A stretch of 64,000 nucleotides of DNA. Origin: Eumeta japonica. Taxonomy: Eukaryota; Arthropoda; Insecta; Lepidoptera; Psychidae. The position numbers were made by a program, and so were the translations under genes. Numbering within the stretch: position 1 is the stretch's first letter; every line of letters begins with the position of its first letter. Positions 25,633 to 56,959 of the stretch are shown here, one piece after another. The stretch is from assembly GCA_005406025.1 (NCBI GenBank), contig BGZK01000888.1, positions 124,001-188,000 on the forward strand, in the 5' to 3' direction. The notes under the pieces are model-generated. The model had not been told where the DNA came from. It searched no databases and saw only the letters and a program-made list of their open reading frames with translations.

Positions 25633-25823
25633 TTATTTATTGCTTTGACTAATTTTCATGACCTTTGCGATGGGTTCAGAAATGTCGTCGTCCGATCGTT
25701 GCCGGCGCCGCAAATGGAAGGGCGCGCCCGTTACCAGATCTTTGCCGCCCTTGATTTTTGGGAACGCGATGACATCCCTTATGGAGCCCGCTTGGCACGA
25801 AAACGCAACCAAGCGATCGACAC
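25633..25823 (-). CDS. DARS2: DARS2-like exon 17 (motif 3, C terminus)
   Basis: Acceptor ...TATGTTTAAG. Two bases complete the split glycine, giving [20 protein letters not shown] followed by [16 protein letters not shown]. The motif 3 arginine and the IRDVIAFPK signature are intact. The tail is basic and acidic and ends in SQSNK, with stop TAA at 25635-25633. The exon is GC-richer than most others of the gene. Confidence 0.93.
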
Positions 25824-37800: not shown

Positions 37801-40800
37801 TGGACAGACCTGTAAGTTAAACGCATCTGCTCACAAAGTAAACTGTTACTGTCAGATAGAGAAACCTGAAGGTTATTAGCTTTGTTCAAAACCTGAAAGG
37901 AAATTGTAGCTTTAATACAATATAGGAAAAATCTAAGTTCCCCAGTTTATAGCATATGCTGTCAACTACATAATTTTCAATGTTATTTAGTGGATTAAAT
38001 TTGGAAAAAAAAGTCATTAGAACAGTATGTCAAGTGTCTGTTTAAAATGTGCGCTTCGTGTAACAACTCCTGAGCAGGATTTGATGAGACTCCATCTATT
38101 TGGGACTTGTATTTAAAATTCATAAAATCTTCATCCAGTTGTCTTTTAGTGGATAATAAGCAGAATCATAATTCAACATTGATAATGTTACCCCAATCAG
38201 GCCAGTTTTTTTTTAGGAATGAGATAGTGCAATTCTAAAAATATATAGCTATATTATAAAATATGTGATATTTTCTTTGTTTTCCTAACAATGCTTATAT
38301 GTTAGATGAATACAAGTACATCTATAAATGATTCTAACATTAGGAAAAATATGGAAATAAAGAATAAAAAAAATTATAACAATGTGTATAATATTACGAG
38401 ACCTGTAAAAATGCTACATTTTAAATTAAAATTTTGTACTTCAGAATAAACAGAACTAATTACTCAATTAAAAAAACAAAAACTGGCCAACAGCGAGTTG
38501 AACTTACGCACCAAGAATATGTACAAGCACATAACATATTTTTACCAGAAATATAAGATTTTTGAGTTTGAGCGCCAAATCCTTAGTGCAAGTACTATTC
38601 ACACTTGGCCGGTTTTTGTTATTTAATTTAGTGTGATTATAGTATGCACTGTGATCACATTAAATTTAACGCTTATATATATATTATTATTTTTACAATA
38701 GAGCAAAAAAAGACTGAAAAAACGTGTTTGGTTTTGCACAGAGCCATGAATGTTTTACTTTTTGTTTATTTTTTGAAGTTATATTTCTTTAGGCCCGTTT
38801 TACTAAATTGTTAAGTGTAAATTGTTACAATGCGTAACAAAAAAATCTACATTACAAAGTTGTTTGCAAACCTATTGTTATATCTTGGTGGTAACTTGGT
38901 AGTAACTTTAGCTTCATAAATTTTTTCTGACAATCAGAACGCGCAAAAATTGATGATATTTTAATTTTCAGATTAAAAATAGACCGAAATTATGTAGGTG
39001 AAGAACATAATTTGAATCAATCACACATAACTTGAATAATAACACAACTGTTATATTGTGCCAAGCATTAATTGATATTATAAGGCTCTAAAAAATTGTA
39101 GATCAATAAATAATATTTATTATAGAAAAAATTCATGCTGTCATTAAATTATAAATTCATATTTCATACAAAAGATACTGAAATAGAATTTTTCTTCAAG
39201 AATTATTTCACTATTTGATTGATTTGTTAACTTATTAAGGTGTTTCATAAATAATGTCGGTTTTTAATATTCAAAGTATAGCCCATCGTACTCTTTGGTC
39301 TTAACCCAAAGTACAGCAACTCTCAAGACCTCAGTAAAACCATTCCTTGGATTTAGATGCAAAGAATTTCCGCGCTCCATTTTCAACATCTCCTTTGAAT
39401 TCAAATTTATTTTCATAGAAAAACTTCGTCATGCCTTTCAACAAATAGTAGTCTGACAGTACAAGGTCTAAACTAAATACTGGATGTGATACGAGCTCAA
39501 TACCACCAGGTTCTTCGATTTTACACCACGTTAACATTTGCAATATTTCATTTAGTATCATGCTATAAGAGCACCCGTTTTCAGTTTACTAAATCTAGAT
39601 ATTTCTGTGACAAAACCTCATACATTGGTGTCAGTTGTTCACTATATATTTCAGCAGTGACAGTTCGACCATATAGAATTATTACAAAATACATTGAGCC
39701 TTCATAATTCCACCAGGCACAAAGACCTTTGGCTCAAATCGAACTCTCTTCATAATGTGTTCCGATAATTGTTCTTCATCTAGCGACTGCTTTTTCAAGC
39801 AGTTTGTTTAGATAAATCTATTTTTCATCACAAGTGACAATGTGTTTAATAAAATGATCATCTTTCAGCAGAGCAAGGAGCTGTTTACACACTTCTACTC
39901 GACATTTCGCTTGAATCTAATTTAAATTGTGGAGCGCTATTTGAAAACTTTCATACATTTTATGTAACAATTTGATATGGCAGTATGCAGTGTCTTTAGA
40001 AAGTCTAAGGGAGTCCGATAATCGGTGAGTGCTGGCACTAAGTTGGTTTTTAACTCCTTCCTCCAATTGCCTCAATATCCCATATAGCTGGCCAACCAGA
40101 GAGCAAATGATTTACTAGCTTTAAATCTCTACTATTAAAACAATTAAGACAACACTGTGCTGTTCGTTCATTGACTACATATTCGCCTTCAATTTCACAT
40201 ATTTTACTTACTGCAGAGATGCTTTAAACTTTCGTTTTCAATAATGTCAACAATACACAAATTTCGTGTTTAAACACTCTATATGTTTTATTGGTAAAAC
40301 ATCTTGCCTATCAATTAACACAGATTATTATTAAAAGAAAGTAAAGCAGACTTCATAAAACTAAAAACTTGTTTAAACAATTTTATTTATGACATTTATA
40401 AAAAGAAGCCTATGAATTCTAGTTATGATAATAGACATTACTAATGAGACACCCGAAATACTATAAATATTAATTAGTGTCTGACTTATATAATTTTAAT
40501 ACATGTGTTTACAAGAATATTGAGTGTTGAATATCTATTTTAATTAATTATTGGACACTCAAATTGCGGGTGATGGTAAATATGTAAATAGTCTGAAACA
40601 TAAGATAAGGATTTTTTTGTTAAGGAAACAAAACTAAAATAGAAAAATCAGATTTAAGCTTAGATCGATATAGTGACATATTGAAGTAGATCGTGGGATT
40701 AGGTCGGGACTAAGTCTAGAAATATGTCTGTGGTCATGTGTAGTATTAAGGTTGAATTCAGTTCTGACATCGGGTTAGGTTTAGAATCAAATTTAGAGTC

Positions 40801-43800
40801 AGGATCCAAAGCACTACCGAAGCAATATCGAAATCAAATACAATTATGGAATTAAATTAAAAATTGGAATTATGTCCATGCAAATAGCACTGTGTACAGA
40901 GCAAATTTGTAATAATATTGTATTGGCTAATAAGTAATGAGCATTTCAGTTTTTATTGTCCAGAAATTTCGAGTAGGCTTGAGAATGTTCTGTGGTAGGA
41001 GCTATATAAAAAACGAGTAGCATTTGTGTACATCAGTTATATTTCAGCTATAATTGCATAGATTATAATTGAGTAATGTTAAAGAAAAAAGAAAAAAAAT
41101 ATATTTATTTAATTAATTATTAAAGCCCATTTCCGACACTATTTAGTTCCAACATAGACATTTTGCAAAGAGGTACAGCAAAGAGTGTCAATGATTCCAC
41201 TATTTTGACTATTTCTCGATAATTCAATTTAGGTCTGAGAGTCCTGTTGAAATTGATATCAATAACTTGAAAGCATTTAGTGAAGACATTTAAATCAGTA
41301 CTCATGATTTGGGTAAGATTCTTTCATAGTATGGTAGAAAATCATTTACATACTTTAGGAAACATTTACAAATATGGTGTTTGGGTACCACACTAGTTAA
41401 TAAAAGATCAAATAATCTATCAGATAGAGGTTTGTGTTACATTTTTATTATTACGCCATACATTTAACTGGCTAAACCATCTCGTCATCGGAAACTAAAA
41501 GTGATTAACCACACAGGTAAGCTTGAGATGCTAAGCTGTAAAGAACCACAAAAACCTACACCAAAAAGTCATCTTTACTATTGAGAGGTAATGCTCTCAA
41601 TATGGTGGGATATACGGAATGATACAGTGACACTTTACTGTAATCAACTTGAAAATTGTGAGCTTGAAATCCATTACAAAGATGAAGAATACAAAGCATT
41701 TTTCCTTCATGACAATGTTCAGCTGCATATTGCTAAAAGTACCTGCTTAAAGCTACCAGAGCTCAATTATAAAATATTACACCACCATCCATATCCAGAT
41801 TTAACCCCAATTATTCTAATTTATTTCCATCCTTCATTTATCGGAAAAAAAACCTTTGACATGGAAGTCAGACCAGCAAAGTTTTACACAGTCACCCATA
41901 CACTCTTTACTGAATCAATATCAAATAGTAGTAGATAATAATGGTGATTAAATTGTAAATGAATAACACCTATTTAATAAATAATAATTAGCAATATTAA
42001 GTTTTATGTGTAACTGATTATTTATTAGCCAACTTGATAATTTACTAGTTGTTAAATTATTGAGAATATTCTAGTTAATATTGTGGAAAATACTTGCAAA
42101 ATAACATGCATATACACATATAAACCATTCCAATTAAATGTGTCAATAAATTCATCATTTGAAACAACTAACAATTAATTTAATACACCAAAAATGAAAA
42201 TCAAAAATTAATATACATATTATGTTTCAAAACAATAATTACTTATATTAATTTGATACCAACTGGTTACTTTATGCTTTATAAGGTATGTGCATATCTG
42301 TATATTGATTGTTTCCGTCTCCTATTTTAAAGGAAATGACCTAATTTCAGTCTTTGTCAGCAAAAATGTAAATTAGGATGTTCTAAACCTAAATAATCAT
42401 AAAGTAATGTACAATATGTAAGGCATCACATTCATAAGCACAAAAGTGAATCATTATATTAGTACTTCTCATAACCAGAACTTTGAATATTTAAAGTGTC
42501 GCATTTAACAGAGGTTTTTTTAGTTTTCTCCCAAACACAATTTTTTTTATACTGTACATCCGAGATTGGGTCACCTAGTTGTATAAAGTTACAACTGTCA
42601 TACACGAGCAAGTGATCCTATAAAGATCTTTTTATTAGGTAAAAAAAAAGAAAGCTTCTGTATTATATTGTAAAAGATAACAATTATTCTTTCTTAAAAA
42701 CAATGAGGCGAATTTTACTTATATAGACATATATTTTTAATTGGTAATTTTATGTAAACAATATAAAAAAGAAAGAACTTAAACTCACTGTGATTTTCTC
42801 TGCCAAAACCTCAACGTCGCCTGTCGTAAACTGTTCATTTTCCATAGAAGGTGGTCGCATTACTACAATTCCTTCTACTTTGAGTATGCTTTCTAATGGA
42901 ATGGTAGAAAGTGTTATATCCTTAACCTAAAACAAATGCCATAGGAGTATTGCTTTTGTGTACCTTTCTTATAACGTGTAAGTTTATTTAATAAAATAAA
43001 AATAAATTAATAACTGGGGTTATCACAATTTAAAAGTCAGATATTTATTCATAAGATTAATAAAAAGTATTTCTTTATAAAAGTACTATAAAAAATGAGT
43101 TTATGTTATCGTTTAATTATTATAATTTTTTGTCAACAAAGAATCTTCGAACCTGTGCTTAAATAAAATTTACAAATTACATCTACACCTGTTCGGAAAC
43201 AACACATTGTATGAATCCATAACCATCACGAAGTATGAGGAATTTGGATAGTCTTTGAAAATGCATCCACCCGCATAGGGTAATCTTCTGGCCGACGTGG
43301 GAGGGTCGCAACTCGCCGCAGGTGTGAGTGCGTGTACTGAATCGACACGCCGGGCTACTCTCTACTTGCATCGAGATCTGTCAACCATATATGCTATTAA
43401 TTAAAAATCTCACTTGTAATTTTTACTTCATAACAAAAACACTAAATCTTATTTGAAACAATATTATCTTTCGTGTAAACAAAATTCTAATTTTCAAGTT
43501 ATATAAATTTCTCTATTGTGATCCTTTAGAAAATGGAAGACAAGTCTGATTATGGATTAAATTTTGTTGTATGTTTGTGTTAGATTTTTGTCACTTTCCT
43601 ACAGAAGGATTTGCTCCAACAATCTATTTCAGACTTAGGGTTACAATGGATCAGATATCCATAAATAATTGGTAATCACTGCTCCATTTAATATAAAAAA
43701 TATCTTGTAAGTAAACCATTTACTTTTATGAACATTTAACTTTAAAAACCATTATAATGTTAATACAGTACAACGCGCAAAACTCTGCCGCTGTGAAGTT

Positions 43801-46800
43801 CGTCATAAAAGCGTTGCAATGGCGTAAAGTAGAAACGCGGCGGAGAAGATGGAACGGTGGGGAAGCGTAGTACCTGTGCAGTATATCAATCGCAACTTAT
43901 TCAGTGGGGCAGAATTTTGTGCGTTGTACTGCACATCGCGTGCAAATTACATTCTAAAAATTTTTCATATGCAATATATGTATTTCAATACAAAATAGTG
44001 TGACCCAGTGTTCAATATGTTGCCTTCAGGCATAGATTCCGTTTCTGACAATAAATGAATTGACCAATGAGTTTTAAGCCAAATAAAAATCACTAGCTCA
44101 TTGTCTCAGAAGATGTATTAAACTGTTAGTGTCAGACATTACATTGTCATGACAAATTCATGACAATTATTAACAGCCCCGACCCACATAGGACTGGCAT
44201 GGATGACTTTAAGGTGCAACCTCATCAATCTAAAATATTATGAGAAAGTTGTTTCTGCAGTAGAGTGTGAAAATTTTTACAAAATCAAATAAATATTTAT
44301 ATGATGTAAGAATTAAATTCAATTAATCTCAGTCAAATTATATTTAATTAGCTGTTCAATATGAAAAAAAGAATAGAGCATAATGATACTGAATTAAGAA
44401 ACTAAACCCTCAAAAGATCCCATTTTTTTTAACATTAAGGGGAATTAATTTTTTTTATTAAATAGTATAAATATAAATTTAGTTTGACTTGTCAGTATGG
44501 CCACTTTCTAAAGTAAAAAATTACATCTTCATTCTTGATTTGGAGTTGTTCAGCTGAAGGTGTCTCCAATACTTCCAGCTGTAGCTCAATGTGACCGTTG
44601 ACACTTGCCTGAAAAATATATCAATTTTGGTAAGACAGACTTCGTTCTCATCGTATGTTAGACCATTACTTGATTTCAATCTTATTTAAAAACTCAACTG
44701 AATATATTATAATACGTAGATAACTAATTTATACAGGGTTATTGGTAACTCGAGACATTCCTTTAAAGTATTGATAATAGTCAAAGGAGCATATTGAAGA
44801 TTTGTTAACTCTTATTGTTTGGATTACTTACAATGTGAAATATTATTTAGAAATTTTACTACACAGAAATATTAAACGATTATTTGCAAAATACTAGTCC
44901 AAAATTGTTGATTTTGTAGATTGGTTTTTTATCTTGAATATAATCAGAATAATGCAGTATTTTAAACCAAACAGGCAATTCAATTACACCTTATACTAAA
45001 TAAGAACGAAGTAGATTTAAAGATATGTAGATGTTTCAAAAGATGGGGTCAATAAGCTTTTGATCTTCACATGACACCGATCACACATGTGTAAATACTT
45101 ATTTTATGTGGCTTTCGGAAGTAGATACCACTGATATACAGATCTGAGATAAGCAAAACTAAAAAACCTTCATGTGTATACTTGGAATTCGTTCAGAATA
45201 AAACTAATTAAAATGATGACACTAACCGGGTTTATCTGAGCTTCCGGCCTCAAAGTAATTATTCCTTTAACATGAATAATATCATTTTGTTTCAAGTTGG
45301 CACTGAAATTCTCCATTTCTTGATTCTGTAATCAAAATTAGAGCCATATTATTGCAATTAATTAACAATGAAGAAGCTTTGTTTCTTTAGTCCAAATAAA
45401 GTAGTAGCCCATATACTACAACAAGTGTATCAACCACAAGCATGCACTATGAAGGGACTGCATATTATTGTTGTCATGTGGTCGGCTCTGTGTTTAAAAC
45501 ACATAAATAAATATATGCATTTGGGGTCAATCAATTATTTGTTGATCAAATTTTTGTAATAAGTCAATCAAATATTGTAATAATTTTGAAAGTCGTGATT
45601 ATATTAAAGTAATTATGAATATAAACATATAAATAGCATTTATATAAGAAACTTGAGTTACCAATAAAATGGTAAAGGGGAAGACAGTAATTTTTAACAG
45701 AAGTGCTAAACGTCATGTAGTTTTGTGAGATCATCAAATAATTCCTAGGTAAAGTTAAAAAATCAGTTTTCATTAAGCATTAAAAACTTATTGTGTTTTC
45801 TTGTAATAAACTTACATTAGAAGGAACAACTGCCTGGATCTTACCATAACCGTCCATAATAAATAAAAATTTTTTTGTTGCTTTTTCTATCCAACAAGTT
45901 AGAGACACCTGTTTATTTATCATATATGGTAAATCCGCGCAAGTATATTTACGATTGTTCAGTAAGTAGAGTAGACCTTTGTTATCTGAAAACAATAAAA
46001 TGTTATTTTGAATAAATAAAATAGAAGTTGGCCAAATTTGATATACCATTATTATTATTAATGAAATTGAGCGACAACTTATTATAAACTATTTGGAATG
46101 CCCAAAGTTCAACTTGTTTGCATCCATAAAACTTGAATGGAATATGGTATGTACTGTATTCGGTGATTATTAGTTATTATTATTGTTACATCAGAAGTGT
46201 TCGAGATATTTAAATAGTCTGATTTTCTCATAATTGTTCCAAATTTCACTTTTTCTTAATCATCATATATCATATTTGAATGTTGGTAATTACAAAATTA
46301 TTTAATTTTGTTATGAGTAATAATATCAAGATATAATAAAATATAATTTTATTATTAAAATATCACACATAAATGAGCAACTTAATAAATTCATTATTTG
46401 GTTCATTCTTTCAATATTTCTTTGCCTTATATCAATCAAGAAGATTGATTTTTTTTTCTATTTTCACATGTTTTTCTTATTTTATGTTCTGCTCTCGGTT
46501 GTTTCTCACTTTGATTTTTTTTTTCTTTGTCTTTAAGCTTCATATATTTAGCCATTGCTCAGCAAGGACTACAGAAGATAAATTCTATGCATCTTTGAAT
46601 TCCTTTTGTGCTAATTTTCTATTTGTTTAGAATAGAGAAAAATAAATGTGAAAGTGTGTCTGTCTCTTACCTCTTTATGCTTAAATCCCTAAATCAATTT
46701 AGATGCAATTCGGTATGGAAATAGTTTGAACCCCGAGGAAGGACATAGCTTACTTTTCGTTTGTTTGTCTGGCCGTTCGTTTGTATGGTTTTTCATGGCT

Positions 46801-49800
46801 CAACAATAATCAAATTGATTTTAATGAACTTAAGTGTACTAATGGAGCACACCATTTTTTCATATATAAGTCATTGTTTGTTTATCTTTCAGTTTGTATG
46901 TCTATTTATAACTCTATAATACAAACAATTTTGATAAAATTTGGAAAACTGATATAATTAATTGGTACATAAAGTATTGATTACTGTTTATTTTTTTGTA
47001 TGTTCATATGTATCACTCCTTATAACTAAAAAGTTTAATAGTTATTTATTTTATTTTGTCGGCCATGCTTATTGTTTTCTTTGTTCAGAAAAGGAGCGGT
47101 GTTAAAGAAGGCAATGAAGATTGAAAGGGAGATGGGAGAATAAGATATGGTGTGAAAGGATGAAGTAATGCGAAGGCAAAAGTAAGAGACAGTGTCAAAT
47201 CATATAATTACAATCGGATCCTAATTATATGATTAACAACAACAGATTAATGTTCAGAAATTGAAAGTAAATTAAAACGAACTATAGGGTGTTTACACTG
47301 CGTCTTTTTCAGTATTATAATATTACAAAAGTGATTATTTATGTCGATGTTTTACTGTTTGTAACTTAATCACGCATAAACGGCTGGATAAATTTAAATG
47401 ATATTTAGCACCGGATTTGTTTAAATCCGGACCGGACTCCATATCGAAACCGGGATTGATATCGTAATCGAGAGCGACAGTAAGATTGGAAAAAAAGAGA
47501 CGCAGGATTGGAATAGACAATAAGACCGAATCGGTACTAACTGTGAAATCGGACCTCAAATCGAAGATGGGATCGGATTAGTATCGATGATTACAACTTT
47601 GTTTGATATAAAATATGAGGAAATAATTGTATTTCAACAAAATGTGACAATGCGCAACAAGGACAGGTCAAAAGCTTTGGGACGTCAAATCCGAAATACG
47701 AAAATGAAAAATGGTTTGTATTTTGTTTTGTCCAATATTTAAAGTATTTTGAACGAAAAAAAATTGTAAAAACTGCTGTTTTTATTTACGTGTGATCATC
47801 TTGACATGAGGGGGTCAAAACTTTATAATTTATGTGACGTAATCTATGGATGGCCCCTAAATTATCCATGACCATAACAGTGTCGCGCACGCGCGGATGT
47901 AATAAAATTATAAAACGCGTTCCATTGTGGAAGTGAAATTGTTACTGTATTGCCACGAGACCATCGCGGATCATGCTCCCTGGACATCGAGAAGAACGAG
48001 GCCGGCGCGAAATAAGTCTTGTCTTGTCGACAGACGATTCCCCTTCATTCGGGAAGCGTGCAGACTAAGGACTAGATGAAAATTAAACACATAATATAAA
48101 ACAGAATATTGAATATAGTTTATCTATTCACTAAACTCTGATACTCATACTTGAATAAAATGAGTAGAATGAACATATTCAATATGTTAATAGAGTCTTA
48201 AAAAATAGTTCATCAAGAACAGCCGTAACAAATAATAATGATCCCGAATTATCTTTAGTAGCTAATCAACTTAATCAATGCATTGATTAGAACATACACA
48301 AACATTTTGGAATGAAAATGATAAGTATTTATTTTTCATGTGACAAAGAGCAAAGTATATAATATGCATTTATGGGGATCCTATTTTAGCTAATGTTTAT
48401 TCGTTTTTGCCATGGAAAGACGGTGGCCCGCAACCTTTATCAGGGCGTTAAACCACTTAGCGGAAGAGCTTCCCAAGATGCGATGTCTAATTCGCAGATG
48501 CAATTCTAGAAATTTTTCTCTTGGCAGTTATTAGTCGTAAGAGTGACGTGGTTTGACCATTACCATTTGAATTTACCAATTCTATGAATTATGTTGATTA
48601 TTTTATTTATTTAAAGGATTACCTCTTTTTGAATTTTGTCTAACAAGAAATTTTGATAATAACTCTTTTTGTTGCACATTAAAGTGATTGAATTTGTTTA
48701 TGACACTTATAGTAAAAAGCATGTTCCTGTAAATACATACATCATAAAATATCCATATATGAAGGCAGTTGCAAACATGAACTGTTGAAAGGTTTTCATC
48801 TCAGGCACTTGAACTCAATAATGCCTCATAATTTCCAGCCAACCTGAATTATTTGGGTAATTTCTTTTTCAGAGTTGTATCTACCTACCCTTAGACAATT
48901 TGGCCTGAGTGACATATTCGTCAACAATTTTAATTTTAGAATTATCATTAAAATGAGTACAACATGGGCATTCAACATTTTTTGTCCAAATGTCTACCTA
49001 CCCTACCTACCTACCTACCTACCCTACCTACCTACCCTACCTACCTACCTACCCTACCTACCCTACCTACCTACCCAAAGTTATATCTACCTATACATTG
49101 ATGATAAAATATAATTTGCCGTAATCTTACACTAATTTGAACATCATAAATGTAATAATAATATACATACTCAATTTATTGTATTCTTCACTTGTTATTT
49201 TTGGTGGATTTATTTCTGAAGGTCGCTCCAATCCTTCTGGCAAAGCAGGTACTTGTACCTTGCGGTCTATTTTGTTAATTTTTACCATTAATATGTCATG
49301 TACTTCAACTTCTATGTCTCCAGTTTGTAACTTCTGCAAATCAATGAAAAATCAAAACTTACTGATTTTGATATAAGTGTGAAAAAAACCAAAAGTTAAA
49401 CATCATTGAATTCGGTTACGAAGTTGAGATTCATGTATATGGTAATAAGTTTTCTATTATTCATTTACTGCTATAAATTTAAGCAGAAATGACTCAATAG
49501 GAACAGTTTTAATTAAGCTTGATTGATTGCGTGGTTAGATCATTAATGATTCAAAATTCAAAGTATCTTTATTTCATAGGTTACAAAATAACACTTGAAA
49601 TACGTCATATTTTTTTGCGAATTTACACTTTACTGCTCGTTCGGAAGGCAGTGATCTAACCACTTGACAGAATTTCTGAACAAAACAATTTTGAATCTAA
49701 AAAAGTGAGTAGTGTAAATACTTTGCTAGTAAATATTTACTGTTATGGACAGCCGAGCACTTAGCCGATAAATTAGACGTAAACTAAATTTGTATAACAA

Positions 49801-52800
49801 TAAACGATTTTTCTTTGTGTTAACTTATGCTAACCATGTAGGACTTAGTTTAAGGATTCTTCTTGTGTTTTAAGTTTATTGTGTTTCTATTTATGCATAT
49901 TAAATAAATAGAACATGTGCATTTTATTACCCGGGTAGGGACTATTTGTAGAAATTATTTATAAATTGTATATATACATTTGTAGTGTATATTTTGAAAT
50001 GGTATTGTGTTTGAATAAATTATTGTTATTGCATTGTGTTATATGAAAGTATAATTATTGTAATGCACATATGAATTGCATATTGAATTATGCCTTGGCG
50101 AGGGGACCAATGAGAGGCCGAGATCCAGGGCGCTATTTAAGGTACGGCCGCGAATCGATATACCAAGCGCATGTGGCGCACTTGCGGAAGGAATGTGAAA
50201 CGAATGGTCACGCTCCATCGTATACAACGTATGCAGTTTATTCGTGCAGCGGAAGCACCGCCTATAAATTTCAGCCATTTTAATTCATCCGTCGAGTTGA
50301 ATTGCAGCAGTAATATGTGAAACTAGTACCACTTTTCACTGGTAGTGAATATACCAGTGAAAAATCTGTCCTGGCCATCAATTCTGCCCACACCACAAGA
50401 AACCATACTCCGAAGCAGCGATGGAAAAGATCCGAGGTACGGGCTTACGCGGCCATAAAGATATCGCCATAATACGTGTAAGTTAAGATGGTTAAATAAT
50501 CAGTACATTGTTGTTAAACAGAAGAAAGGTTTGGTTTCTATACATTTGTATACGTTTGGTTTCTATGCAAATTGAACAATGACTTTAATTAATAAGAAAA
50601 GAATCCTAAGTACTCAGTCTAACATTCTTTGTTTAAAATACAAAATAAGCAAAAAGAGTTCCTGGAAGCTCAAAATACATTGTGTGCATAACCTGTTACA
50701 ATTGTGAATGAGTTGTAACTATATGTTGTGTATTTGTATTAGTGTTTTTATATGTTATTTACTGTGTATACATTTCTGAGTCAAACTAGAACTAGAGTAC
50801 ATTACAATAAGCAGAAGTATATGAAGTATGAAGATTTAATCATCTCACTGTGGAGACATATTCTACTACAATGTTCTTATTTCAAATTGAGGGCCTTGGA
50901 ACTTAAACCCTTCATACAGAACAAATGTGGATTGGGGGCTGTTAACAATTGTTGTCACAATTATGATGACAATAGACTGACTGCTTAATGAGCTCTCCAT
51001 AAAATGGATGTATGGTTTCATTTGACCCAAGTTGCAACCTCATATAAAAAGTATTTCATATTTCATATTCAAGACATTTTTTTATCATATTTTATTTGCC
51101 TTTAATTATAATATATTTGCTATTTTGTTCAACAACTTGTTGCCATTTTGTCAGTAGTGACATAATCCCATTGCTGTAGAAATTTTGGGACTTCTGATCA
51201 AAAAACTTCGACAAGTAGTTTGACAGTCCTCTCTTAATGTTAACCTACCTAAAGAATTCTGAATACACTGAAACAGGTGAAAATCTGAATGTCTAAGGTC
51301 AGGGTTATATGGTGGATGCATTAACACTTCCTAACCAAACTCTCTCAATATTCGCTGAGTGGCTAAAGATGTGTGTGGTCATGGTGAAAAACCACACCCT
51401 ATCTATTGATTAGTTCTGGTCGTTTTTTCTCTACTTCTTACTTGAGTCTCATCAGCTGTTGGCAGTAGAGATTGAAATTGACAGTTTTTTCCGACGGTAA
51501 AAGTTCATAATGAATAATGCCCTTCTATTCCTACCATACACATAGCATCAATTTATTGCCAGTTAATCTGGTTTCGTTATACTTTGTGGAGCTTGCTTGC
51601 CTTTTGACCATGATCTTTTTTACATGTCCTCGTCGTAGGTACTCCATTTTTCCTCATCAGTGACCAATCTTTTCAAAAAAAACGGTTGAGTTTCATTACG
51701 TTTTAATAAGGAATCGCAAATGAGTACACCATTCATTAAATTTCTTTCAGTGAGTTCTTGTGGAATCCTAGTATCAAGCTTTTTCATATATCCAGTTTTT
51801 TAAAATGTGTCAAAACTGTTTTATGGTCAATGTCAAGCTCTTTGTAAGTGAGGTTCATCTTTGACCTATTCATATTATCGAAATGAAAACGCTTGAACCA
51901 GTTTTATGGTACTTTCACCAACACTGCATTAGGTCCATAAACGTCACGAATTTTTTTTGGCCGTTTGTCTTGAATTTTTCCTTTTTGTAATAAAATACAA
52001 ACTTCAGTAGAAATAATTAACTAAATATGTCAAAATAAATTGTTTTAACTTTATAATTGGCAGTTAACTAACATAATTTGAAAGATATTAGATTAGACTA
52101 ATTAAATGTCACAAATGCCAATATCTCTAAAATTATTGATATTTTACATTTTTTAGTTTTTAACTTTATGAGTTGGCAGTTAACTATTGCTCATGAGAGT
52201 TTGAAGCACACTGATGCATAACTCATAAAGTAACCTTGCTATATATAGGCGTTTTATGCTTGAATGTGTCAAACCAATATATAAATATTATAATTATATA
52301 TTAATTAAAGAGGATATGCAGTCAAAGAACAGATATAAAGGTCAATATTAGGTTTGATGTTGCTTGCATGCTTGAATTGAAAATTTAAGTATGTAATATT
52401 AATGGTACTTTACCCTTATAGTACATATGAACTTACTTCATTATGTCCTCGGCCAGGCCTGCCCCGAACTTCACCTACCACAACTACATATGATTGTAAA
52501 GGTATTTTGGAGAATCGTCTTTGCAGATCAGTTCGCTAAAAATAAGAATTGTACATTGTTAGACTGTGACTGTTAATTTTATTGATATGACATTATTGTA
52601 AATAAAAAAAAATCACCATCACATAGTTTAAATCAAGTTTACAGCATTCAACACAGTTTTATTAGGAATAATGCTGGATATATTTTAGAATCAATCTGTT
52701 GAAGTTTGAAAAAAAAAATTTTCAATTTTTTTTAATTCCTCAAAATCTCTACATAATAGATTGATTGGAATTAGGTTTACCCTATTCAAAAATATTTGAT

Positions 52801-55800
52801 TGATTAAGTATTTTTGAATAGGGTAAACCTAATTCCGATCAATCCATTCATTGAAAAGGTATTCAAGGTTTATACAGAATGGAATTGATCATGCATCTTT
52901 CCATAAATATTCACACTCACCTTTTTTAGAACAACTTTTCCAAAGTAACTATAACTAAAACATGCTTATAAAGAACAAAAATAATACAAAGAAAACCCTA
53001 TGAAATGCTTGATCAGACGGCACACGTGTCTACGCGCCACACCCGGGCACGTGACGAATGGGTTATATGATGTATTATTTTTAAAGAAATTATCTAGTCA
53101 CTTAATTACAAATGACACTTCATATTATTAGTAATGTAAAGGTCGCTGACGGTATTATTATAATCTCTGATTTTCCACATATAGGAAAATTATCGTGTAA
53201 ACGACAAACAACACGCAATTTTACTTGTGGACTCGCAGGTTGTTGACTGACAGGGTAAGTTTCACTATAAAGTTTTAGAGCTGAGCAATATCAACTTTGT
53301 AAACTCCCCAACAATAAATCATGTTTACATATTCGATAGCAGTGAAAGGCATTGTTATTAAACACTTCAATATTGTTCACGCCCAATTTTAGTTTCAAAA
53401 ACATCAATATTGTAAACGTAACTCTTTATAACAAAATACCATAAGCTCTTAAAGCTTCGCGTCGAGTCGTCAACCGCGCGCGGACAGGCGTACCCGCCGC
53501 ATGACAGGATGGATGGGTTTGGAAGCGCGCATCATGTTACTAACCGCTAGGACTGTACATCGTACGTTTACACGTTTACGTTCTAAGTTATTTTTCTCAG
53601 AAACTTCTACTTCATTGACTATAGTTTCTTTGGCAAAGTTGTCCTAAAAAAGAAGATTATGAATATTTGCGGGACGCGTGATTGATTCCATGCGGTGTAT
53701 GTTATATTTTAACCGTTGGGTAGTAATTCTAAAGCTTTGTGCATGGCTTCATCTTATAATTATAGAAATCAAAAGCGAGAGGCAGATGGGAAATTCTCCA
53801 AAAAAATTAAAAATCGTGTCCGTACCTATTTTCATGTGTTATTAACACATGTGACATCACCTTATTATTTTTTTTATGAACACTATAGAACTATAACTAC
53901 ATGTACCACGCATAATTTTAGTGTTCTTGTTCCTAGGTGAAGAATATCAGTTGACCGAATACCCTAAAAATCGATCCATTCCACGCTCAATATTACGACG
54001 ATATATATTATTTTGCTAATTCATCTTGCTTTACAGAAATGTTAATTAAAATATAATTTTTTATTTTAAAAATACTACATGTAACAATAAATATGATTTT
54101 CATTGAGTAAATAATAATAAATTATTCGAAACTTAATTACTTTTCTTTGTCCCACCTAAATAGAATCATTCCCTCACATTTTATAAACACTTGTCCAATA
54201 CTATTGCATTTGACTTTTCGAAGCCATATTACTTAATTACATATTACATTTATATGCATCATTTTGAAGTTTGAACAAAATAATTGTCACGGACGACGAC
54301 ATCGCACCAAAATAGTTTAAGTCGTATTTACATTATATGGATTTATATACATATATAATACTTACATATCGTACTTGAGAATGCAAATATAGGTTTAGCT
54401 CACATAGGGATATTAATAGTACGTATATATGTGAGTTATAGGCTACTGTGTCCATACAGTGCATTAATACTGTAATTTCGTAATCGTATTAACTAATGTT
54501 CGGCTTGTATGAAATATAACATAAGGAATGCACATAGATAAACATGCTTGATGCAATAGCGCAAAGTATTGCATCAACCTTGAGTGAGCAAGACAGGTAT
54601 ATGTAACAGGTATTGTGGGGATAGGCGATGCGGGCACCTAGGATAGATTTCAGGTAGGCAATAAATAATAGTTATTGTTATGTGTTTTCATTTTACCTCG
54701 AATGTTGAATGAAGATATTAGGTTCATTACTTGTCCTATAGGCTGTCAGTATGTTCTATAATATACTCGATAGATGTATCCGAGCCGTTGGTAGCAGCCG
54801 GAATCATATGGCTGTACGACCCAAAATTAGGAAAGCTAGACATTTAGGGCATACAGCCAGCTCACTACCACACACGGAGGATATAAAGGACAACAGTCGA
54901 TATAGAAATAAGGGAAAAACGGGATAAGAACAGTTCGGTGCTCTATATTCAACTAGAAACACGGACACGGTCTAGATTTGTAATATTTATTCGTAAATAT
55001 TGTGAGATGATCGTAATTTTAACGAATTTAATAAATAACAATGAGGTGCATCTTCGGGAAGTCGGTCGCACAGTAGGGGTAATGTACTTCCGGCTTACGT
55101 TGTCAGTTCGAGTGCAGCGGAAGAACCCCAAAGAAGAGGGAAGCAGCGCCCACCGCAGAGGGTGAAGCCAGTGTGGTACAACGACGACGGCGTTTTATTC
55201 AGAGCCATTTTCCCGTGGAAGAATATTCGTCCTCCACGATAACTGTTTCATTTTTTTAATAATTGCAATATTTTTTGCAGCCTTTAGGAGGTACAATATT
55301 ACCCTTTAATTACAAATCAAACTCAGATTATATATAACCATGTTTTGTTGATTATATTTGATTTTCGTTTGAATGTGAAAGTTTAAACAGATTTGAATAA
55401 GTTTTGTCACATAGAACATGTATTGGATTATGATATAACAAATTTTACTCCAGTAATGCATTCCTTTCAAATATTAGAAAATTAAGGGAAAGAGCTAAAT
55501 CAAGAATTAGACAAGAGTCAAGGGCAGAAGTGGGATTGAAAGCGAGAATAGGATCATATTAGATGACAGGAGTAAGATTGAAACTGGAATCTAGAACAAG
55601 ACTAATATTGGAATCAAAATGGACAGAGGCAAAATCAAATTTGAGAGCGAAATTGAGATCTAAATCAAGAGCGAAGCCGTAATAATTGTCAATCGCGGAA
55701 TCATGTCCGAGAGAGATCTCAAACAAGAATGGGAATCTGATCGAGGACAAAACCAAATTTAGATGCAAAAATGGAACGGGACTGGAATAGGGTAGACTGT

Positions 55801-56959
55801 GATCGTAATTCAGGGAGGGACTTAGAATGGAATCAAAAGTAAAACTGGAATTGAACATGAGAAAGAGATTAAAATCGAGACCAGGGAGAATGGCACTGAG
55901 TTTGGAAATGAAAGTGAGACAAGTATTGAAATCGAAAAATTGAAATCAGGATTGGGATCGAGAGCGGGACTAGGATCAGATACTACAAAAAAACCAGGTT
56001 CGGGATTGGAATTGACAGCAAGACCAGTATTGAATTTAGAAGACATCAGTATCAAAATGGAGAATGCGATTGGAATAAAAATCGAGGGAGTGATTAATTG
56101 ACATCAAAAATAAGACCACTGGAATCAAAAGTGAACCAAGATTGGATTGAAATAGTGTAGCCAGAATTGAAATCAAGAACAGGGCCATGATTGGATTAAG
56201 ATAAACAGAAAGGTCCCTTGGTATAAAATTAATTACAATTATTTTGAAATATTAAAAAATGCAGAACATATGCATTTCAAAATTTTAGTCGAATCAAGGA
56301 TAAATATAAATTATATGTATAAGCAGTTGTCAAGGAGTAAATTTATGGCATAATAATTTTAATTACATGGTTTAATTTAATATTAATTCATTTCAATAAG
56401 GTCATAATTAAAAAAGTTCACTCATAAAATTCATTTTAGCGACATACATTATTTTCATTGTATTACAATGATTAATGTTAATCTGTGATATAATAATCAT
56501 TTATAAAGTTTCTAAGTAAGTAGGTTACCAAAGCAGAGACTTACATTTGTTGGTAGAACTAATTGAGTTATACCATGATAATCTTTCAATTGTATAAAAC
56601 GGTCTTTTGATGTTTTGTGGATTTTTCCTGCTAGCTCTACAAGTCGTCCTATATCATGTTTTCGAAGTTCTCCACAGTTTGGACGATAAGGCGTACCATA
56701 ATTTTGCTGAGTAACCCAAAATGGATTAAAGGAATTGTTCTGCATCAATGGCTGAATGGCTGTAAAATTTATTAATTAAAAATGTAAGCAGATATGGATT
56801 ACTTTGGAATATTCCCAAATGCATTAAATTCTTCTTAACTATATACCACATAACATTCATATGTTTATAATACTAAATGAAAAATTAAAGAACAATGCCA
56901 TAAAACATACCAAGGCTATGATCCTTGTCATTGTAACCTCCTGAGCCATACATTATGAC
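25633..56959 (-). CDS. DARS2: DARS2-like protein: three tandem OB folds plus degenerate AspRS catalytic core (17 exons)
   Basis: The gene is related to mitochondrial aspartyl-tRNA synthetase, which charges tRNA-Asp. Seventeen exons total about 870 residues, against about 645 for human DARS2. The N-terminal OB-fold module occurs three times: exons 1-4, 5-7 and 8-10. The class II core follows, with motif 1 (FIEVETPLL), a motif 2 region (SKCFKNE) and motif 3 (GISIGVDRL). Splice phases agree at every junction except exon 12-13, which is off by one base. Many AspRS active-site residues are replaced: the TPEGA loop, motif 2 Arg to Lys, HHPFT to GQPFP, and the Mg/ATP Glu to Lys. Q195-, E219-, R489- and R537-equivalents remain. 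I infer a pseudoenzyme or highly diverged paralogue. The start is uncertain; the first usable ATG is at 56953-56951, and no mitochondrial targeting peptide is evident. Confidence 0.88.
26074..26257 (-). CDS. DARS2: DARS2-like exon 16
   Basis: Encodes [20 protein letters not shown] and, at the end, [12 protein letters not shown] plus a split glycine. The FDLV aspartate and the arginine after GSGAV (aspartate-binding in AspRS) are kept. The glutamate of the family motif N-G-x-E-x-G-G-G is lysine here (KGKKFGSG). Donor GTATGA, phase 1. Confidence 0.93.
26436..26639 (-). CDS. DARS2: DARS2-like exon 15
   Basis: Sixty-eight codons, phase 0 at both ends. [15 protein letters not shown] matches the AspRS motif LWVVDFPLF. 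The next family signature, HHPFT-P, is replaced by YGQPFPKP, so both histidines are absent. The donor is GC, not GT (AAG|GCAAGT), a well-formed GC-AG intron. Confidence 0.93.
26700..27990 (-). mobile_element. non-LTR retrotransposon fragment (endonuclease plus RT) in intron 14
   Basis: Sense to the host gene. The minus strand gives an endonuclease C-terminal signature ([19 protein letters not shown], then [10 protein letters not shown]) at 27720-27590. RT motifs [15 protein letters not shown] (about 26940-26890) and WYVDDSTV (about 26855-26825) follow. Several frames are broken. It is truncated on both sides, probably of a Jockey/CR1-like clade, though the clade is not certain. Confidence 0.85.
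27772..27808. repeat. perfect inverted repeat, 1-base loop
   Basis: Perfect 18-base arms TTGCCTTAGCCTATGGTC (27772-27789) and complement (27791-27808) around a single T, inside the retrotransposon fragment. Confidence 0.95.
28297..28551 (-). CDS. DARS2: DARS2-like exon 14 (insertion domain region)
   Basis: Eighty-five codons, phase 0 at both ends, acceptor ...ACTTACAG and donor GTAAGG. It begins [14 protein letters not shown], matching the I-D-I-S-D-V-F helix of DARS2, and ends [11 protein letters not shown], joining CLALGEVR in exon 15 as in the family (G..NKACSLLGKLR). The middle corresponds to the reduced GAD-like insertion and is poorly conserved. Confidence 0.9.
29757..29972 (-). CDS. 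DARS2: DARS2-like exon 13 (post-motif 2)
   Basis: Seventy-two codons in phase 0. It begins [20 protein letters not shown], aligning residue for residue with the RDE...DRQPEFTQID stretch of AspRS, and contains [14 protein letters not shown]. The equivalents of R225 and D233 are serine. The acceptor AAG|AAT gives phase 0, but exon 12 ends in phase 2, so GT-AG joining shifts the frame. The donor GTTTTG is weak. Confidence 0.88.
29973..31441. other. intron 12, with Helitron-like array at 30262-30560
   Basis: The complement of 30262-30295 ends in GGGCAAAAGTTAGTT, like the Helitron 3' terminus at 10512-10538. Next to it, 30335-30560 is a degenerate repeat of TTCGATTTTAGTTCTGG type in inverse orientation to the other loci. 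The remainder is AT-rich without recognised features. Confidence 0.5.
31442..31575 (-). CDS. DARS2: DARS2-like exon 12 (core up to motif 2)
   Basis: Acceptor ...TTTTACAG and donor GTAAGT. It encodes [35 protein letters not shown] and FQISKCF, then two bases of the next codon. LPQ-P-Q--MLM and LDR-FQ follow AspRS. The serine of LPQSPQ is asparagine and the following lysine is also asparagine. The family FLVPSR is FLVETE. Confidence 0.92.
31935..32050 (+). pseudogene. 5S rRNA pseudogene
   Basis: The 116 bases start GCCAACGTCCATACCATG and end GCGTGATGTTGGC followed by TTTT, and include ACACCGGTTCTCGTCC and CACCGAAGTTAAG as in animal 5S rRNA. Small deletions near the C box (CGATGTGACC for GGATGGGTGACC) and changes in GGGAACACC show decay. 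The 5' and 3' terminal pairing (GCCAAC with GTTGGC) is kept. It lies in intron 11 of the DARS2-like gene on the opposite strand. Confidence 0.93.
32051..32940. other. intron 11, no further feature recognised
   Basis: AT-rich sequence without recognisable exon or repeat family. Confidence 0.5.
32941..33371 (+). mobile_element. dispersed MITE-like repeat, copy 2 (uninterrupted)
   Basis: Same element as 7228-7982, without the inner MITE. It contains an extra hairpin (33012-33060) not present in copy 1, where the corresponding sequence is colinear. It shows the empty target TAAATAC for the 7497-7837 insertion. Confidence 0.8.
33012..33060. repeat. inverted repeat absent from the paralogous copy
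   Basis: Arms of 18 bases (33012-33029 and 33043-33060), ATAAATTTAGGAGGGAAA and its complement with one mismatch, around a 13-base loop. In copy 1 (about 7302-7340) only the left arm is present. Confidence 0.85.
33372..34258. other. intron 11, unassigned sequence
   Basis: Contains a short stretch at about 33540-33790 whose + strand reads fragments like KRFQLR after a broken frame, possibly the C-terminal end of a gag-pol polyprotein. It is too degenerate to call. The rest is AT-rich. Confidence 0.3.
34259..34378. repeat. alternating purine-pyrimidine (GT/GC) tract
   Basis: About 120 bases of mainly (TG)n and (CG)n alternation, including TGTGTGTGTGTGTG at the left and GTGTGCGCGCGCGCGCG near the centre. 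Such tracts have Z-DNA potential. The open frames seen on both strands here are products of the repeat. Confidence 0.9.
34659..35146. mobile_element. 488-bp pogo/Tigger-type MITE
   Basis: Ends CAATGGAATCTCAATAACTC and (complement) CAGTGGAATCTCAATAACTC are inverted repeats with one mismatch, flanked by TA on both sides (34657-34658 and 35147-35148). This is the terminal signature of pogo-like Tc1/mariner elements. There is no transposase frame. An older relative is at 57171-60600. Confidence 0.9.
35147..37501. other. intron 11, repeats and unassigned sequence
   Basis: At 35640-35790 a GC-richer stretch with CACCGCCGCCCATG resembles a common lepidopteran repeat 3' region. A (C)10 run is at about 35841-35850. 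A (TA)n palindromic run is at 36265-36303. A GC-rich block at 36770-36840 is unassigned. No exon was found. Confidence 0.45.
37502..37643 (-). CDS. DARS2: DARS2-like exon 11 (motif 1)
   Basis: One base completes an arginine codon, then 47 codons follow, phase 0 at the donor (GAT|GTGAGT). It encodes [20 protein letters not shown] and [15 protein letters not shown]. The YRYLDLR signature and the motif 1 proline are intact. After ETP the family loop TPEGA is replaced by MFDDP across the exon 11-12 join. Confidence 0.93.
37810..37892 (-). CDS. DARS2: DARS2-like exon 10 (hinge)
   Basis: Acceptor ...CCTTTCAG, 27 codons plus two bases, donor GTCTGT. It reads [20 protein letters not shown] then EQMRLTYR, matching the hinge between OB fold and core (E-R-L-YRYLDLR). 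Phase 2/1 with exon 11 fits. Confidence 0.9.
37893..39238. other. intron 9, small GGTTCCG-family MITE at 38475-38620
   Basis: A 146-bp segment has inverted ends ACAAAAACTGGCCAA and TTGGCCGGTTTTTGT, the terminal motif of the GGTTCCG family. The rest is AT-rich and unassigned. Confidence 0.5.
39239..40330 (-). mobile_element. mariner relic (classic mariner lineage)
   Basis: The minus strand encodes [20 protein letters not shown] followed by [20 protein letters not shown], the C-terminal end of mariner transposases (YSPDLAPSDYHLFRSLQN). Upstream lies an altered IVTGDEKW region (TCDEKxIYLNK). Frame shifts make it inactive. It is a different subfamily from the copies in the first 20 kb. Confidence 0.8.
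41330..41940 (+). mobile_element. mariner relic, opposite orientation
   Basis: The 115-codon frame at 41591-41938 starts [20 protein letters not shown] and continues with [14 protein letters not shown] and HPYPDLTP, matching MLSVWWD, LYCNQL, HxDNAxxH and HPPYSPDLAP. A decayed VPH and N-terminal region precedes it from about 41340. The first catalytic D region is broken. Confidence 0.85.
42789..42926 (-). CDS. DARS2: DARS2-like exon 9 (OB copy 3, second part)
   Basis: Forty-six codons, phase 0, acceptor ...TTGTTTTAG and donor GTGAGT. It encodes [20 protein letters not shown] followed by [14 protein letters not shown], matching V-V-x-G-x-V-x-R-P and TGEIEI of AspRS. The intron that splits this region in copies 1 and 2 is absent here. 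Confidence 0.93.
43189..43377 (-). CDS. DARS2: DARS2-like exon 8 (OB copy 3, first part)
   Basis: Sixty-three codons, phase 0. It reads [20 protein letters not shown] and then [17 protein letters not shown], the most canonical of the three OB starts, and ends [15 protein letters not shown]. An ATG at 43371 could once have been the ancestral start. A proper acceptor (GGTTGACAG) and matching phase join it to exon 7. Confidence 0.93.
43766..43931. mobile_element. 166-bp MITE with long TIRs
   Basis: The ends begin CAGTACAACGCGCAAAACTC and (complement) CAGTACAACGCACAAAATTC, about 24 of 28 positions matching. The body is GC-rich. No clear target duplication was seen. It lies in intron 7. Confidence 0.75.
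44525..44608 (-). CDS. DARS2: DARS2-like exon 7 (OB copy 2, third part)
   Basis: Twenty-eight codons, phase 0, acceptor ...ATTTTTCAG and donor [26 protein letters not shown] corresponds to the TGEIEIKVKTAELL strand of the OB fold. It links directly to exon 8. Confidence 0.88.
45227..45325 (-). CDS. DARS2: DARS2-like exon 6 (OB copy 2, second part)
   Basis: Exactly 33 codons, phase 0 both sides, as in the equivalent exon 3. It contains [19 protein letters not shown], matching V-V-x-V-x-G-x-V-x-x-R-P of the family. Donor GTTAGT. Confidence 0.9.
45816..45985 (-). CDS. DARS2: DARS2-like exon 5 (OB copy 2, first part)
   Basis: Two bases complete an asparagine codon from exon 4, then 56 codons follow, ending in phase 0 (GTAAGT donor). 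[20 protein letters not shown] followed by W, and [16 protein letters not shown], match TCGEL...GQ-VTLCGW and LRD-GIVQV-. Confidence 0.92.
45986..48993. other. intron 4, Helitron-like repeats
   Basis: At 46640-46760 there is a stretch resembling a widespread lepidopteran repeat (CTTACCTCTTTATGCTTAAA, then AATTCGGTATGGAAATAG). A degenerate GA-rich array of GGGATTGATATCGTAATCGA type occupies 47400-47580. An inverted repeat lies at 47198-47234. The remainder is AT-rich. Confidence 0.5.
48994..49076 (+). repeat. (CTAC)n microsatellite
   Basis: About 83 bases of CTAC units with interspersed CCCTAC variants, 95 bases downstream of the exon 4 donor in transcript direction. It produces a spurious tyrosine/proline/threonine-rich open frame. 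Confidence 0.97.
49171..49333 (-). CDS. DARS2: DARS2-like exon 4 (OB copy 1, third part and linker)
   Basis: Fifty-four codons plus one base, acceptor ...GATTTGCAG and donor [26 protein letters not shown] matches TGEIEIKVKTAELLN. The rest ([20 protein letters not shown]) corresponds to the hinge before YRYLDLR but leads into OB copy 2 instead of the core. Confidence 0.93.
49334..51090. other. intron 3, unassigned GC-richer island
   Basis: Bases 50090-50280 are GC-richer with 70-79 codon frames on both strands and no recognised domain, probably an old insertion. A hairpin (TTTCACTGGTA...TACCAGTGAAA) lies at about 50333-50361. Confidence 0.4.
51095..51985 (-). mobile_element. mariner relic, nearly full length
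   Basis: Minus-strand fragments in order: [35 protein letters not shown], a decayed DEKW stretch with [13 protein letters not shown], and a WWD-like region. These match NAV..AQ.WF.RF, ELNIDHKTVLNHLKK and downstream mariner motifs. Many stops are present. Confidence 0.8.
52437..52535 (-). CDS. DARS2: DARS2-like exon 3 (OB copy 1, second part)
   Basis: Exactly 33 codons, phase 0 both sides, acceptor ...TTATTTTTAG and donor [26 protein letters not shown] then [13 protein letters not shown] matches P-E-S-V-V-Q-V-S-G-T-V-x-x-R-P. It is homologous to exon 6 and to the first half of exon 9. Confidence 0.92.
52759..52844. repeat. inverted repeat, 36-base arms
   Basis: Arms 52759-52794 and 52809-52844 pair with one mismatch around a 14-base loop. 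The core is GGAATTAGGTTTACCCTATT and its complement. Confidence 0.95.
52845..55500. other. intron 2, no gene recognised
   Basis: AT-rich sequence with GC-richer patches near 53010-53050, 53455-53540 and 55060-55210. None encodes a recognised domain or carries paired splice signals. Confidence 0.45.
55505..56190 (+). repeat. degenerate GA-rich minisatellite-like array
   Basis: About 690 bases built of variants of GGGATTGAAATCGAGA with irregular spacing. Minus-strand frames through it read as repeated Ser/Phe/Asp/Leu stretches. It is the longest of six such arrays in the window; others are near 4420, 10381, 30335, 40660 and 47400. Confidence 0.8.
56545..56759 (-). CDS. DARS2: DARS2-like exon 2 (OB copy 1, first part)
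   Basis: Two bases complete an alanine codon, then 71 codons follow, phase 0 at donor [26 protein letters not shown] and then [20 protein letters not shown] match TCGELR--H-GQ-V-L-GW and LRD--GIVQVI-P. The CGW tryptophan is replaced (AGK). The exon ends at the same homologous point as exons 5 and 8. Confidence 0.93.
56911..56959 (-). CDS. DARS2: DARS2-like exon 1 as found (49 bases, possible start)
   Basis: Acceptor ...CTGTTTACAG and donor GTATGT flank [16 protein letters not shown] and one base of the next codon, phase 1, matching exon 2. The ATG at 56953-56951 is the first usable start. An upstream 5' exon is implied by the acceptor. A GTACGT donor at 61712 preceded by GTTATTGTGCCG is a candidate, with an in-frame TAG upstream, which would make that exon 5' UTR. 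Confidence 0.7.

What the first reader, a model, noticed from the sequence alone, without database searches (positions are those of the whole stretch)
42789..56959. AspRS-related protein with three tandem OB-fold anticodon-binding modules
Three separate sets of exons each encode the AspRS N-terminal OB fold: exons 1-4 (NCGELR...GITQLV...VVGEVRGRP...TGDIEV), exons 5-7 (TCADLP...KIQAVV...VKGIITLRP...NGHIEL) and exons 8-9 (TCGELR...FIQCVV...VEGIVVMRP...TGDVEV). Known AspRS enzymes carry one. Phases at all joins between copies fit one mRNA: exon 4 ends with one base and exon 5 supplies two, while 7 to 8 and 9 to 10 are phase 0. All 17 exons are on one strand in the right order, with no stop inside any. 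Three OB folds could bind several RNA sites, or bind tRNA without charging it. I do not know whether other insects share this.
Basis: partly seen in the sequence, partly recalled or inferred. Interest (0 to 1): 0.92.

Follow-up and report, generated by a model that had tools for sequence, protein, structure and literature searches.

The report
Moth AspRS relative, three RNA-binding modules
This bagworm-moth gene is an old mitochondrial aspartyl-tRNA synthetase gene that carries three tRNA-reading domains, a design shared by many insects, but its chemical centre has decayed while a second, intron-free copy elsewhere in the genome looks intact, so this one probably now binds RNA without charging it.

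Summary
The minus strand (56959-25633) encodes three divergent AspRS-type OB modules and an AspRS core; joins from copy 1 through copy 3 into the core are in frame. The public Eumeta japonica protein P0001 already joins them. The claim that known AspRS enzymes carry one module is wrong for insects: 75 other proteins (named ones from flies, a caddisfly, termites, cockroaches, a leafhopper, a lacewing) have three. My literature searches found no description.

The stranger part is the core. Residues invariant or nearly so in 199-238 relatives are replaced (K198N, R217K/N, D233S, HH448-449GQ, E482K; E. coli numbers recalled). Losses concentrate in active-site exons; OB1, OB3 and the dimer-motif region are largely kept. 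Elsewhere the genome holds an intact, single-exon, single-OB AspRS (L001), near the same RNA-binding gene as in a skipper butterfly. Most likely an intron-free copy took over charging, and the parental gene survives as a non-charging RNA-binding protein. One junction (X11/X12) breaks the frame as assembled, so a dying gene or a 1-base assembly error is not excluded. No expression data were available.

The parts
56911..56959 (-). X0, leader exon ([14 protein letters not shown]...), not mitochondrial-signal-like
   Evidence: Same in P0001; acceptor TTTACAG, donor GTATGT
56545..56759 (-). X1, OB copy 1, first part
   Evidence: Pfam tRNA_anti-codon below cut-off
52437..52535 (-). X2, OB copy 1, second part
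49171..49333 (-). X3, OB copy 1 end plus linker ITSEEY
   Evidence: linker conserved in other insects
45816..45985 (-). X4, OB copy 2, first part
45227..45325 (-). X5, OB copy 2, second part
44525..44608 (-). X6, OB copy 2 end
43189..43377 (-). X7, OB copy 3, first part
   Evidence: (below cut-off)
42789..42926 (-). X8, OB copy 3 end
   Evidence: Pfam tRNA_anti-codon below cut-off
37810..37892 (-). X9, OB-core link
37502..37643 (-). X10, motif 1 and dimer region; Pfam tRNA-synt_2 49.8 bits
31442..31575 (-). X11, aspartate-binding loop and start of motif 2, degenerate
29757..29972 (-). X12, motif 2 loop onward, degenerate; junction with X11 out of frame as assembled
28297..28551 (-). X13, insertion domain
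26436..26639 (-). X14, HHPFT lost; GC donor AAG|GCAAGT
26074..26257 (-). X15, NGxEVGGGS changed, R489 kept
25633..25823 (-). X16, motif 3 arginine kept; basic tail LRRRQR; stop
   Evidence: Pfam tRNA-synt_2 below cut-off

Best explanation
This is the original multi-exon mitochondrial AspRS gene of the moth line, with the three-OB layout inherited from an early winged insect. After an intron-free, single-OB copy (L001 on contig C34) took over mitochondrial charging, the parental gene lost amino-acid and ATP binding but kept its three OB modules and dimer region. The most likely mechanism is a non-charging dimer in which each OB barrel grips a tRNA-Asp-like anticodon loop or other U-rich loop through the kept F35, Q46, R78 and E93 contacts, probably outside the mitochondrion. 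Shown by sequence: architecture, loss of catalytic residues, retained OB residues, the intact second gene. Inferred: that the protein is made, dimerises, binds RNA, and where it acts; also that L001 arose by reverse transcription rather than by intron loss.
For: Ancient architecture: 75 other triple-OB proteins; OB1 copies form one clade with support 100/98 that includes this one; copy 2 sits with fly OB2 (83/83, long branch), copy 3 with the moth single OB (97/63). Catalytic loss: K198, R217, R225, Q231, D233, HH448-449 and E482 replaced, each invariant or nearly so in 199-238 relatives. Selective loss: columns at least 97% conserved in all relatives kept 16 of 16 in X7+X8, 12 of 14 in X9+X10, 10 of 10 in X16, but 36 of 58 in X11+X12+X14+X15. 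OB1 keeps 16 of 16 family columns, and F35, Q46, R78, E93 are kept in all three copies. OB3 evolves at the normal pace (54% to caddisfly, against 54% and 48% for two active moth enzymes) while the core is faster (40% against 56% and 55%). Intact single-exon AspRS-m L001, near the RNA-binding gene that is fused to AspRS-m in the Epargyreus prediction P0008. Simulated unconstrained drift of the L001 core gave 0 of 100 stop-free runs at each of four distances.
Against: The X11/X12 join breaks the frame as assembled. No RNA or protein data. Copy 2 keeps only 15 of 20 family columns, fewer than the eight other proteins compared (17-20). No long relative was found in another moth (limited sensitivity), so conservation after the catalytic loss cannot be measured. 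The position of this gene in the tree rests on a long branch (2.2-2.3).
Confidence: 0.6

Rival explanations
1. A dying gene: after the intron-free copy took over, the parent drifted and has recently become a pseudogene, with the X11/X12 frame break as the first lesion.
For: Frame break at X11/X12 with a stop at residue 504; core branch 2.21 against a median end branch of 0.28; copy 2 somewhat eroded; no other moth copy found.
Against: No stop inside any exon over about 2.5 kb of coding sequence although the core is about 42% identical to L001; simulated drift always gave stops; losses cluster in the active-site exons. The published bagworm assembly was built from nanopore reads and then polished with short reads (PMC6488591, passages read), so a 1-base error is possible.
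Confidence: 0.21
2. A subunit of a mixed dimer with the intact L001 enzyme in mitochondria, as the inactive SerRS relative SLIMP pairs with mitochondrial SerRS.
For: Region of motif 1 and dimer contacts kept (12 of 14 columns in X9+X10); the intact partner has one OB, this one three; SLIMP precedent (PMC10570016, passages).
Against: The leader is not mitochondrial-signal-like (2 K/R and 2 D/E in 40 residues against 8 and 0 in L001), and no upstream signal exon was found by a simple scan or by tblastn of eight leaders, whose best hit has E 0.44; both tests are weak. No long partner was found in other moths (limited sensitivity).
Confidence: 0.12
3. Copies 1 and 2 belong to a separate transcript or gene and copy 3 plus core to another.
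For: X4 and X7 each have an in-frame ATG near or above the module.
Against: The one-base plus two-base join 3/4 fits; the loose linker pattern [ILVM]TxxE between OB1 and OB2 is found in 74 of 75 other triple proteins; P0001 joins them; 14 of the 75 come from contigs under 5 kb, as spliced transcripts would (my reading; intron-free genes not excluded).
Confidence: 0.05
4. An ordinary active mitochondrial AspRS with an unusual active site.
For: Motif 3 arginine, R489, Q195 and E219 are kept.
Against: K198, R217, D233, both histidines and E482 are changed to residues that 0 of the 199-238 relatives have there; an intact enzyme exists.
Confidence: 0.02

Closest known systems
Insect mitochondrial AspRS with three OB modules (Haematobia P0010, Arctopsyche P0002, Drosophila CG31739 relatives)
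   Same: OB1-linker-OB2-OB3-core order, OB1 clade, linker pattern
   Different: Their active-site residues are intact; here they are not
Single-OB mitochondrial AspRS of moths (Bombyx P0013, Amyelois P0003, bagworm L001)
   Same: Copy 3 and core are nearest to these
   Different: No OB1/OB2, intact active site, signal-like leader; L001 has no introns
SLIMP, inactive SerRS relative
   Same: Mitochondrial synthetase relative with ablated active site and kept tRNA-binding part (PMC10570016, passages)
   Different: SerRS family, coiled coil instead of OB modules; its partner enzyme lost a domain
Human DARS2 (4ah6)
   Same: Best PDB match of copy 3 and core, 365.9 bits
   Different: One OB module in the match, intact motif 2 in the alignment shown

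Membership tests
Bacterial-type (mitochondrial) AspRS by descent | OB module plus class II core with insertion domain, homologous throughout | tested here: met
Catalytically competent AspRS | Motif 2 arginine, K198, D233, E482 and HH pair | tested here: not met
   all replaced; motif 2 position reads K in my model or N with the alternative splice, never R
Catalytically competent AspRS | Aminoacylation activity | not testable with these tools
   needs purified protein
Triple-OB insect AspRS-m | Three OB modules in order, each like its positional counterpart | tested here: met
   OB2 and OB3 groups are not single clades in that tree
Triple-OB insect AspRS-m | One transcript across all three | tested here: inconclusive
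   phases and P0001 agree; no RNA data
Mitochondrial protein | N-terminal targeting signal | tested here: inconclusive
   leader not signal-like; simple scans upstream found none
Inactive synthetase relative (SLIMP-like) | Ablated active site with retained tRNA-binding residues | tested here: met
   at sequence level only
Inactive synthetase relative (SLIMP-like) | Pairs with the active enzyme | not testable with these tools
   needs co-purification
Parental gene displaced by a retrocopy | Intron-free intact paralogue at another locus | tested here: met
   L001, 636-aa open frame on C34 with the catalytic motifs
Parental gene displaced by a retrocopy | Poly-A tract or target-site repeats at the copy | not tested
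   copy is probably too old

The most novel reading that the evidence does not exclude
Insect mitochondrial AspRS has long carried a second, non-charging RNA-binding job done by its three anticodon readers. In moths an intron-free copy took over charging, freeing the parent, and the bagworm gene is that second job left on its own: a triple-OB RNA-binding pseudo-synthetase.
Probability: 0.35. Interest if true: 0.8.

Novelty: new variant of a known kind. Interest (0 to 1): 0.6.

Why it matters
Drosophila and other insects carry a three-OB mitochondrial AspRS whose extra modules keep anticodon-reading residues, and my searches found no paper on it. A genome where the charging job and the triple-OB part sit in two genes is a natural separation experiment: it asks what the extra modules do when charging is removed.

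Tried and rejected
Nuclear localisation through basic motifs: in 75 triple-OB proteins [KR][KR]x[KR] occurs in 9 leaders past residue 25 (shuffled mean 3.1, maximum 8) but in only 4 tails (shuffled mean 6.2), so it is weak; those named in the printed part are mosquitoes and midges. Upstream signal exon: a scan of 57-64 kb gave one unconvincing candidate. A tblastn of leaders against the next 20 kb did not run, because the files I named did not exist; rerun against that stretch and 57-64 kb, its best hit has E 0.44, a weak test. Other long moth genes: the region 1-275 search gave 2 hits among 1168 candidates, one being Eumeta itself and the other an unnamed 597-aa protein. Literature on a multi-OB AspRS or pseudo-AspRS: the listings show none (18, 46 and 74 list only 20 of 40, 12 of 31 and 10 of 32 papers). 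Passages read: the Drosophila synthetase survey names CG31739 as AspRS-m without mention of modules (PMC4826098); a review of synthetase duplications names AS-A and ErdS as AspRS paralogues (PMC9437257); a study of lepidopteran retrocopies does not use the words tRNA or ligase in its main text (PMC11675541). A Psychidae-only duplication (this gene and L001 as sisters) was rejected, p-AU 0.009, with a long-branch warning. Neither an allelic copy of the X11/X12 junction nor a second triple-OB gene could be searched for, because the genome search stayed busy; the PF00152 census did work.

Full report
Source. The window lies at C883:124001-188000 of its own assembly (701.7 Mb, 5067 contigs). The public Eumeta japonica protein P0001 comes from a contig of the same length, 257042, and aligns to my joined model over residues 20-525 without a mismatch and with one gap. 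The bagworm genome paper (PMC6488591; passages read) describes a nanopore assembly polished with short reads, of 731.8 Mb in 12,720 contigs, with gene models built from cDNA reads. The held assembly is smaller, so it may be a filtered version; I take the window to be that bagworm.

Observation. Seventeen exons on the minus strand (X0-X16) encode a leader, OB copy 1, a linker, OB copy 2, OB copy 3 and an AspRS core. Phases agree from X0 to X11 and from X12 to X16. Copies 1-2, 1-3 and 2-3 are 26, 37 and 32% identical. X11 ends in phase 2 and X12 begins in phase 0; with the first AG the protein stops at residue 504. Using an acceptor 23 bases into X12 gives 842 residues without a stop, and skipping X11 gives 805 (counted without X0). 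Which is real, or whether one base is missing in the assembly, cannot be told here.

The architecture is old and shared. The first protein search brought a caddisfly (P0002) and a horn fly (P0010) protein with the same layout, and a planthopper (P0018) with two modules. A search with the alignment of these and an OB profile of my own over 239 proteins (238 found plus this one) gave 76 with three modules including this one, 40 with two, 120 with one and 3 with four pieces (P0001, P0145, P0192; at least P0001 and P0145 contain a split module). Both searches list only their best 120. Named triple-OB sources are Diptera, the caddisfly Arctopsyche, Blattodea (Coptotermes, Periplaneta, Zootermopsis, Blattella, Diploptera), the leafhopper Homalodisca and the lacewing Chrysoperla; where named, most are called mitochondrial AspRS or hypothetical protein. 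Single-module insects in the set are 14 moth and butterfly rows (six without a species name, placed by the tree), 4 beetles, 1 ant, and at least three short fly-like rows that look like fragments (P0233, P0235, P0236); short gene models may hide modules in the others too. In the tree of 83 modules OB1 forms one clade (100/98) holding copy 1; copy 2 falls with two fly OB2 rows (83/83, long branch 1.72) and copy 3 with the moth single modules (97/63); OB2 and OB3 are not single clades there, with few columns. The loose linker pattern [ILVM]TxxE is present in 74 of 75 others; a stricter form in 54 of 76. Fourteen of the 75 are encoded on contigs under 5 kb, as spliced transcripts would be (my reading).

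Each module keeps anticodon-reading residues. E. coli F35, Q46, R78 and E93 (roles recalled, sequence checked) are present in OB1 of 75, 73, 74 and 69 of 75 others, in OB2 of 112, 114, 112 and 114 of 114, in OB3 of 114 of 114 each, and in all three copies here (for two-module proteins I took the modules to be OB2 and OB3). Against this: W23 is absent from all 76 OB1 rows, this one included, R28 falls in a gap, N82 did not align well, and copy 2 here has M for R39. Copy 1 here keeps 16 of 16 columns at least 90% conserved in its family, copy 2 keeps 15 of 20 (eight other proteins keep 17-20), and copy 3 keeps 29 of 34 (the eight keep 28-34).

The core is not that of a working enzyme. K198, R217, D218, R225, Q231, D233, H448, H449 and E482 are replaced, at positions where 198-237 of 199-238 relatives agree (P0001, the same gene cut short, is counted among them); Q195, E219, R489 and the motif 3 arginine are kept. 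The R217 position lies at the broken junction: K in my joined model, N with the alternative acceptor. Of columns at least 97% conserved in 237 relatives, X7+X8 keep 16 of 16, X9+X10 12 of 14, X16 10 of 10, but X11 11 of 18, X12 12 of 18, X14 4 of 8 and X15 9 of 14. With the 138 insect-like rows alone the picture is the same but less clean: X7+X8 21 of 22, X9 5 of 6, X10 15 of 21, X16 13 of 14, X11 15 of 30, X12 16 of 22, X14 6 of 9, X15 12 of 17. In total this gene keeps 74 of 98 such columns, while eleven other insects keep 94-100%. OB3 is 54% identical to the caddisfly, against 54% and 48% for two active moth enzymes, but the core is 40% against 56% and 55%. Unconstrained drift simulated from the L001 core, without indels, gave no stop-free run in 100 at each of four distances.

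The genome has an intact enzyme. The PF00152 census gave 16 matches on seven contigs. C34 (L001) carries an intron-free 636-aa AspRS with a basic leader, one OB module and the catalytic motifs. By my reading of the translations the others are LysRS (C956), AsnRS types (C1273, C3518, C2222) and cytosolic AspRS (C537). About 12 kb upstream of L001, on the same strand, lies a gene 71% identical over 213 residues to the RNA-binding protein that is fused to AspRS-m in the skipper prediction P0008. This suggests a shared position, hence an origin before bagworms and butterflies parted; it is one neighbour in one species. L001 groups with the moth single-OB proteins (92/80) and this gene lies outside; joining this gene with L001 is rejected at p-AU 0.009, with a long-branch warning. 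In the wider tree this gene and the moth enzymes exclude the caddisfly (97/93).

Reading. I infer that the window gene is the parental triple-OB AspRS-m, replaced in charging by an intron-free copy and kept, at least until recently, for something that needs the OB modules and probably the dimer. The leader is not like a mitochondrial signal, so action outside mitochondria is my first guess; a SLIMP-like mixed dimer (PMC10570016, passages) is the main functional rival, and recent pseudogenisation the main non-functional one.

Limits. No RNA data; one species with the decayed core; the residue at the broken junction was placed by me; E. coli core numbers are recalled; the top-120 listings limit the survey; structural evidence covers P0001 only (mean pLDDT 75, pTM 0.43, best PDB match human mitochondrial AspRS).

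Noticed in passing
window 31935-32051 +: A full-length 5S rRNA-like sequence (RF00001, 78.4 bits) inside the intron between X10 and X11; a stray copy or a 5S-derived element.
   Followed up: no
window 11881-12330 +: Exon of a lipid desaturase gene (PF10520, 38.8 bits), by eye like plasmanylethanolamine desaturase.
   Followed up: partly
window 26771-26947 -: Reverse-transcriptase fragment (PF00078, 30.7 bits) in the intron between X13 and X14.
   Followed up: no
window 39334-40223 -: Open frames that look like a mariner-type transposase remnant by eye; no Pfam hit for the 84-aa piece tested.
   Followed up: no
P0001; window 53643-53494 and 35778-35620: The public protein carries two stretches that look like spurious exons and ends after X10, perhaps because the predictor met the X11/X12 break.
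   Followed up: partly
P0168, P0173, P0174, P0177, P0182, P0217 and others: Mosquito and midge triple-OB proteins have a KRRRL-like basic motif in the leader, in some (P0173, P0177) after a mitochondrial-signal-like start and an inner Met; possible dual targeting.
   Followed up: partly
P0010, P0131 and other fly proteins: Fly leaders carry a long Gly-rich RGG-like stretch after an inner Met that follows a mitochondrial-signal-like start.
   Followed up: no
L002 (C1273): An AsnRS-like gene with a 430-aa open frame, perhaps also intron-free.
   Followed up: no
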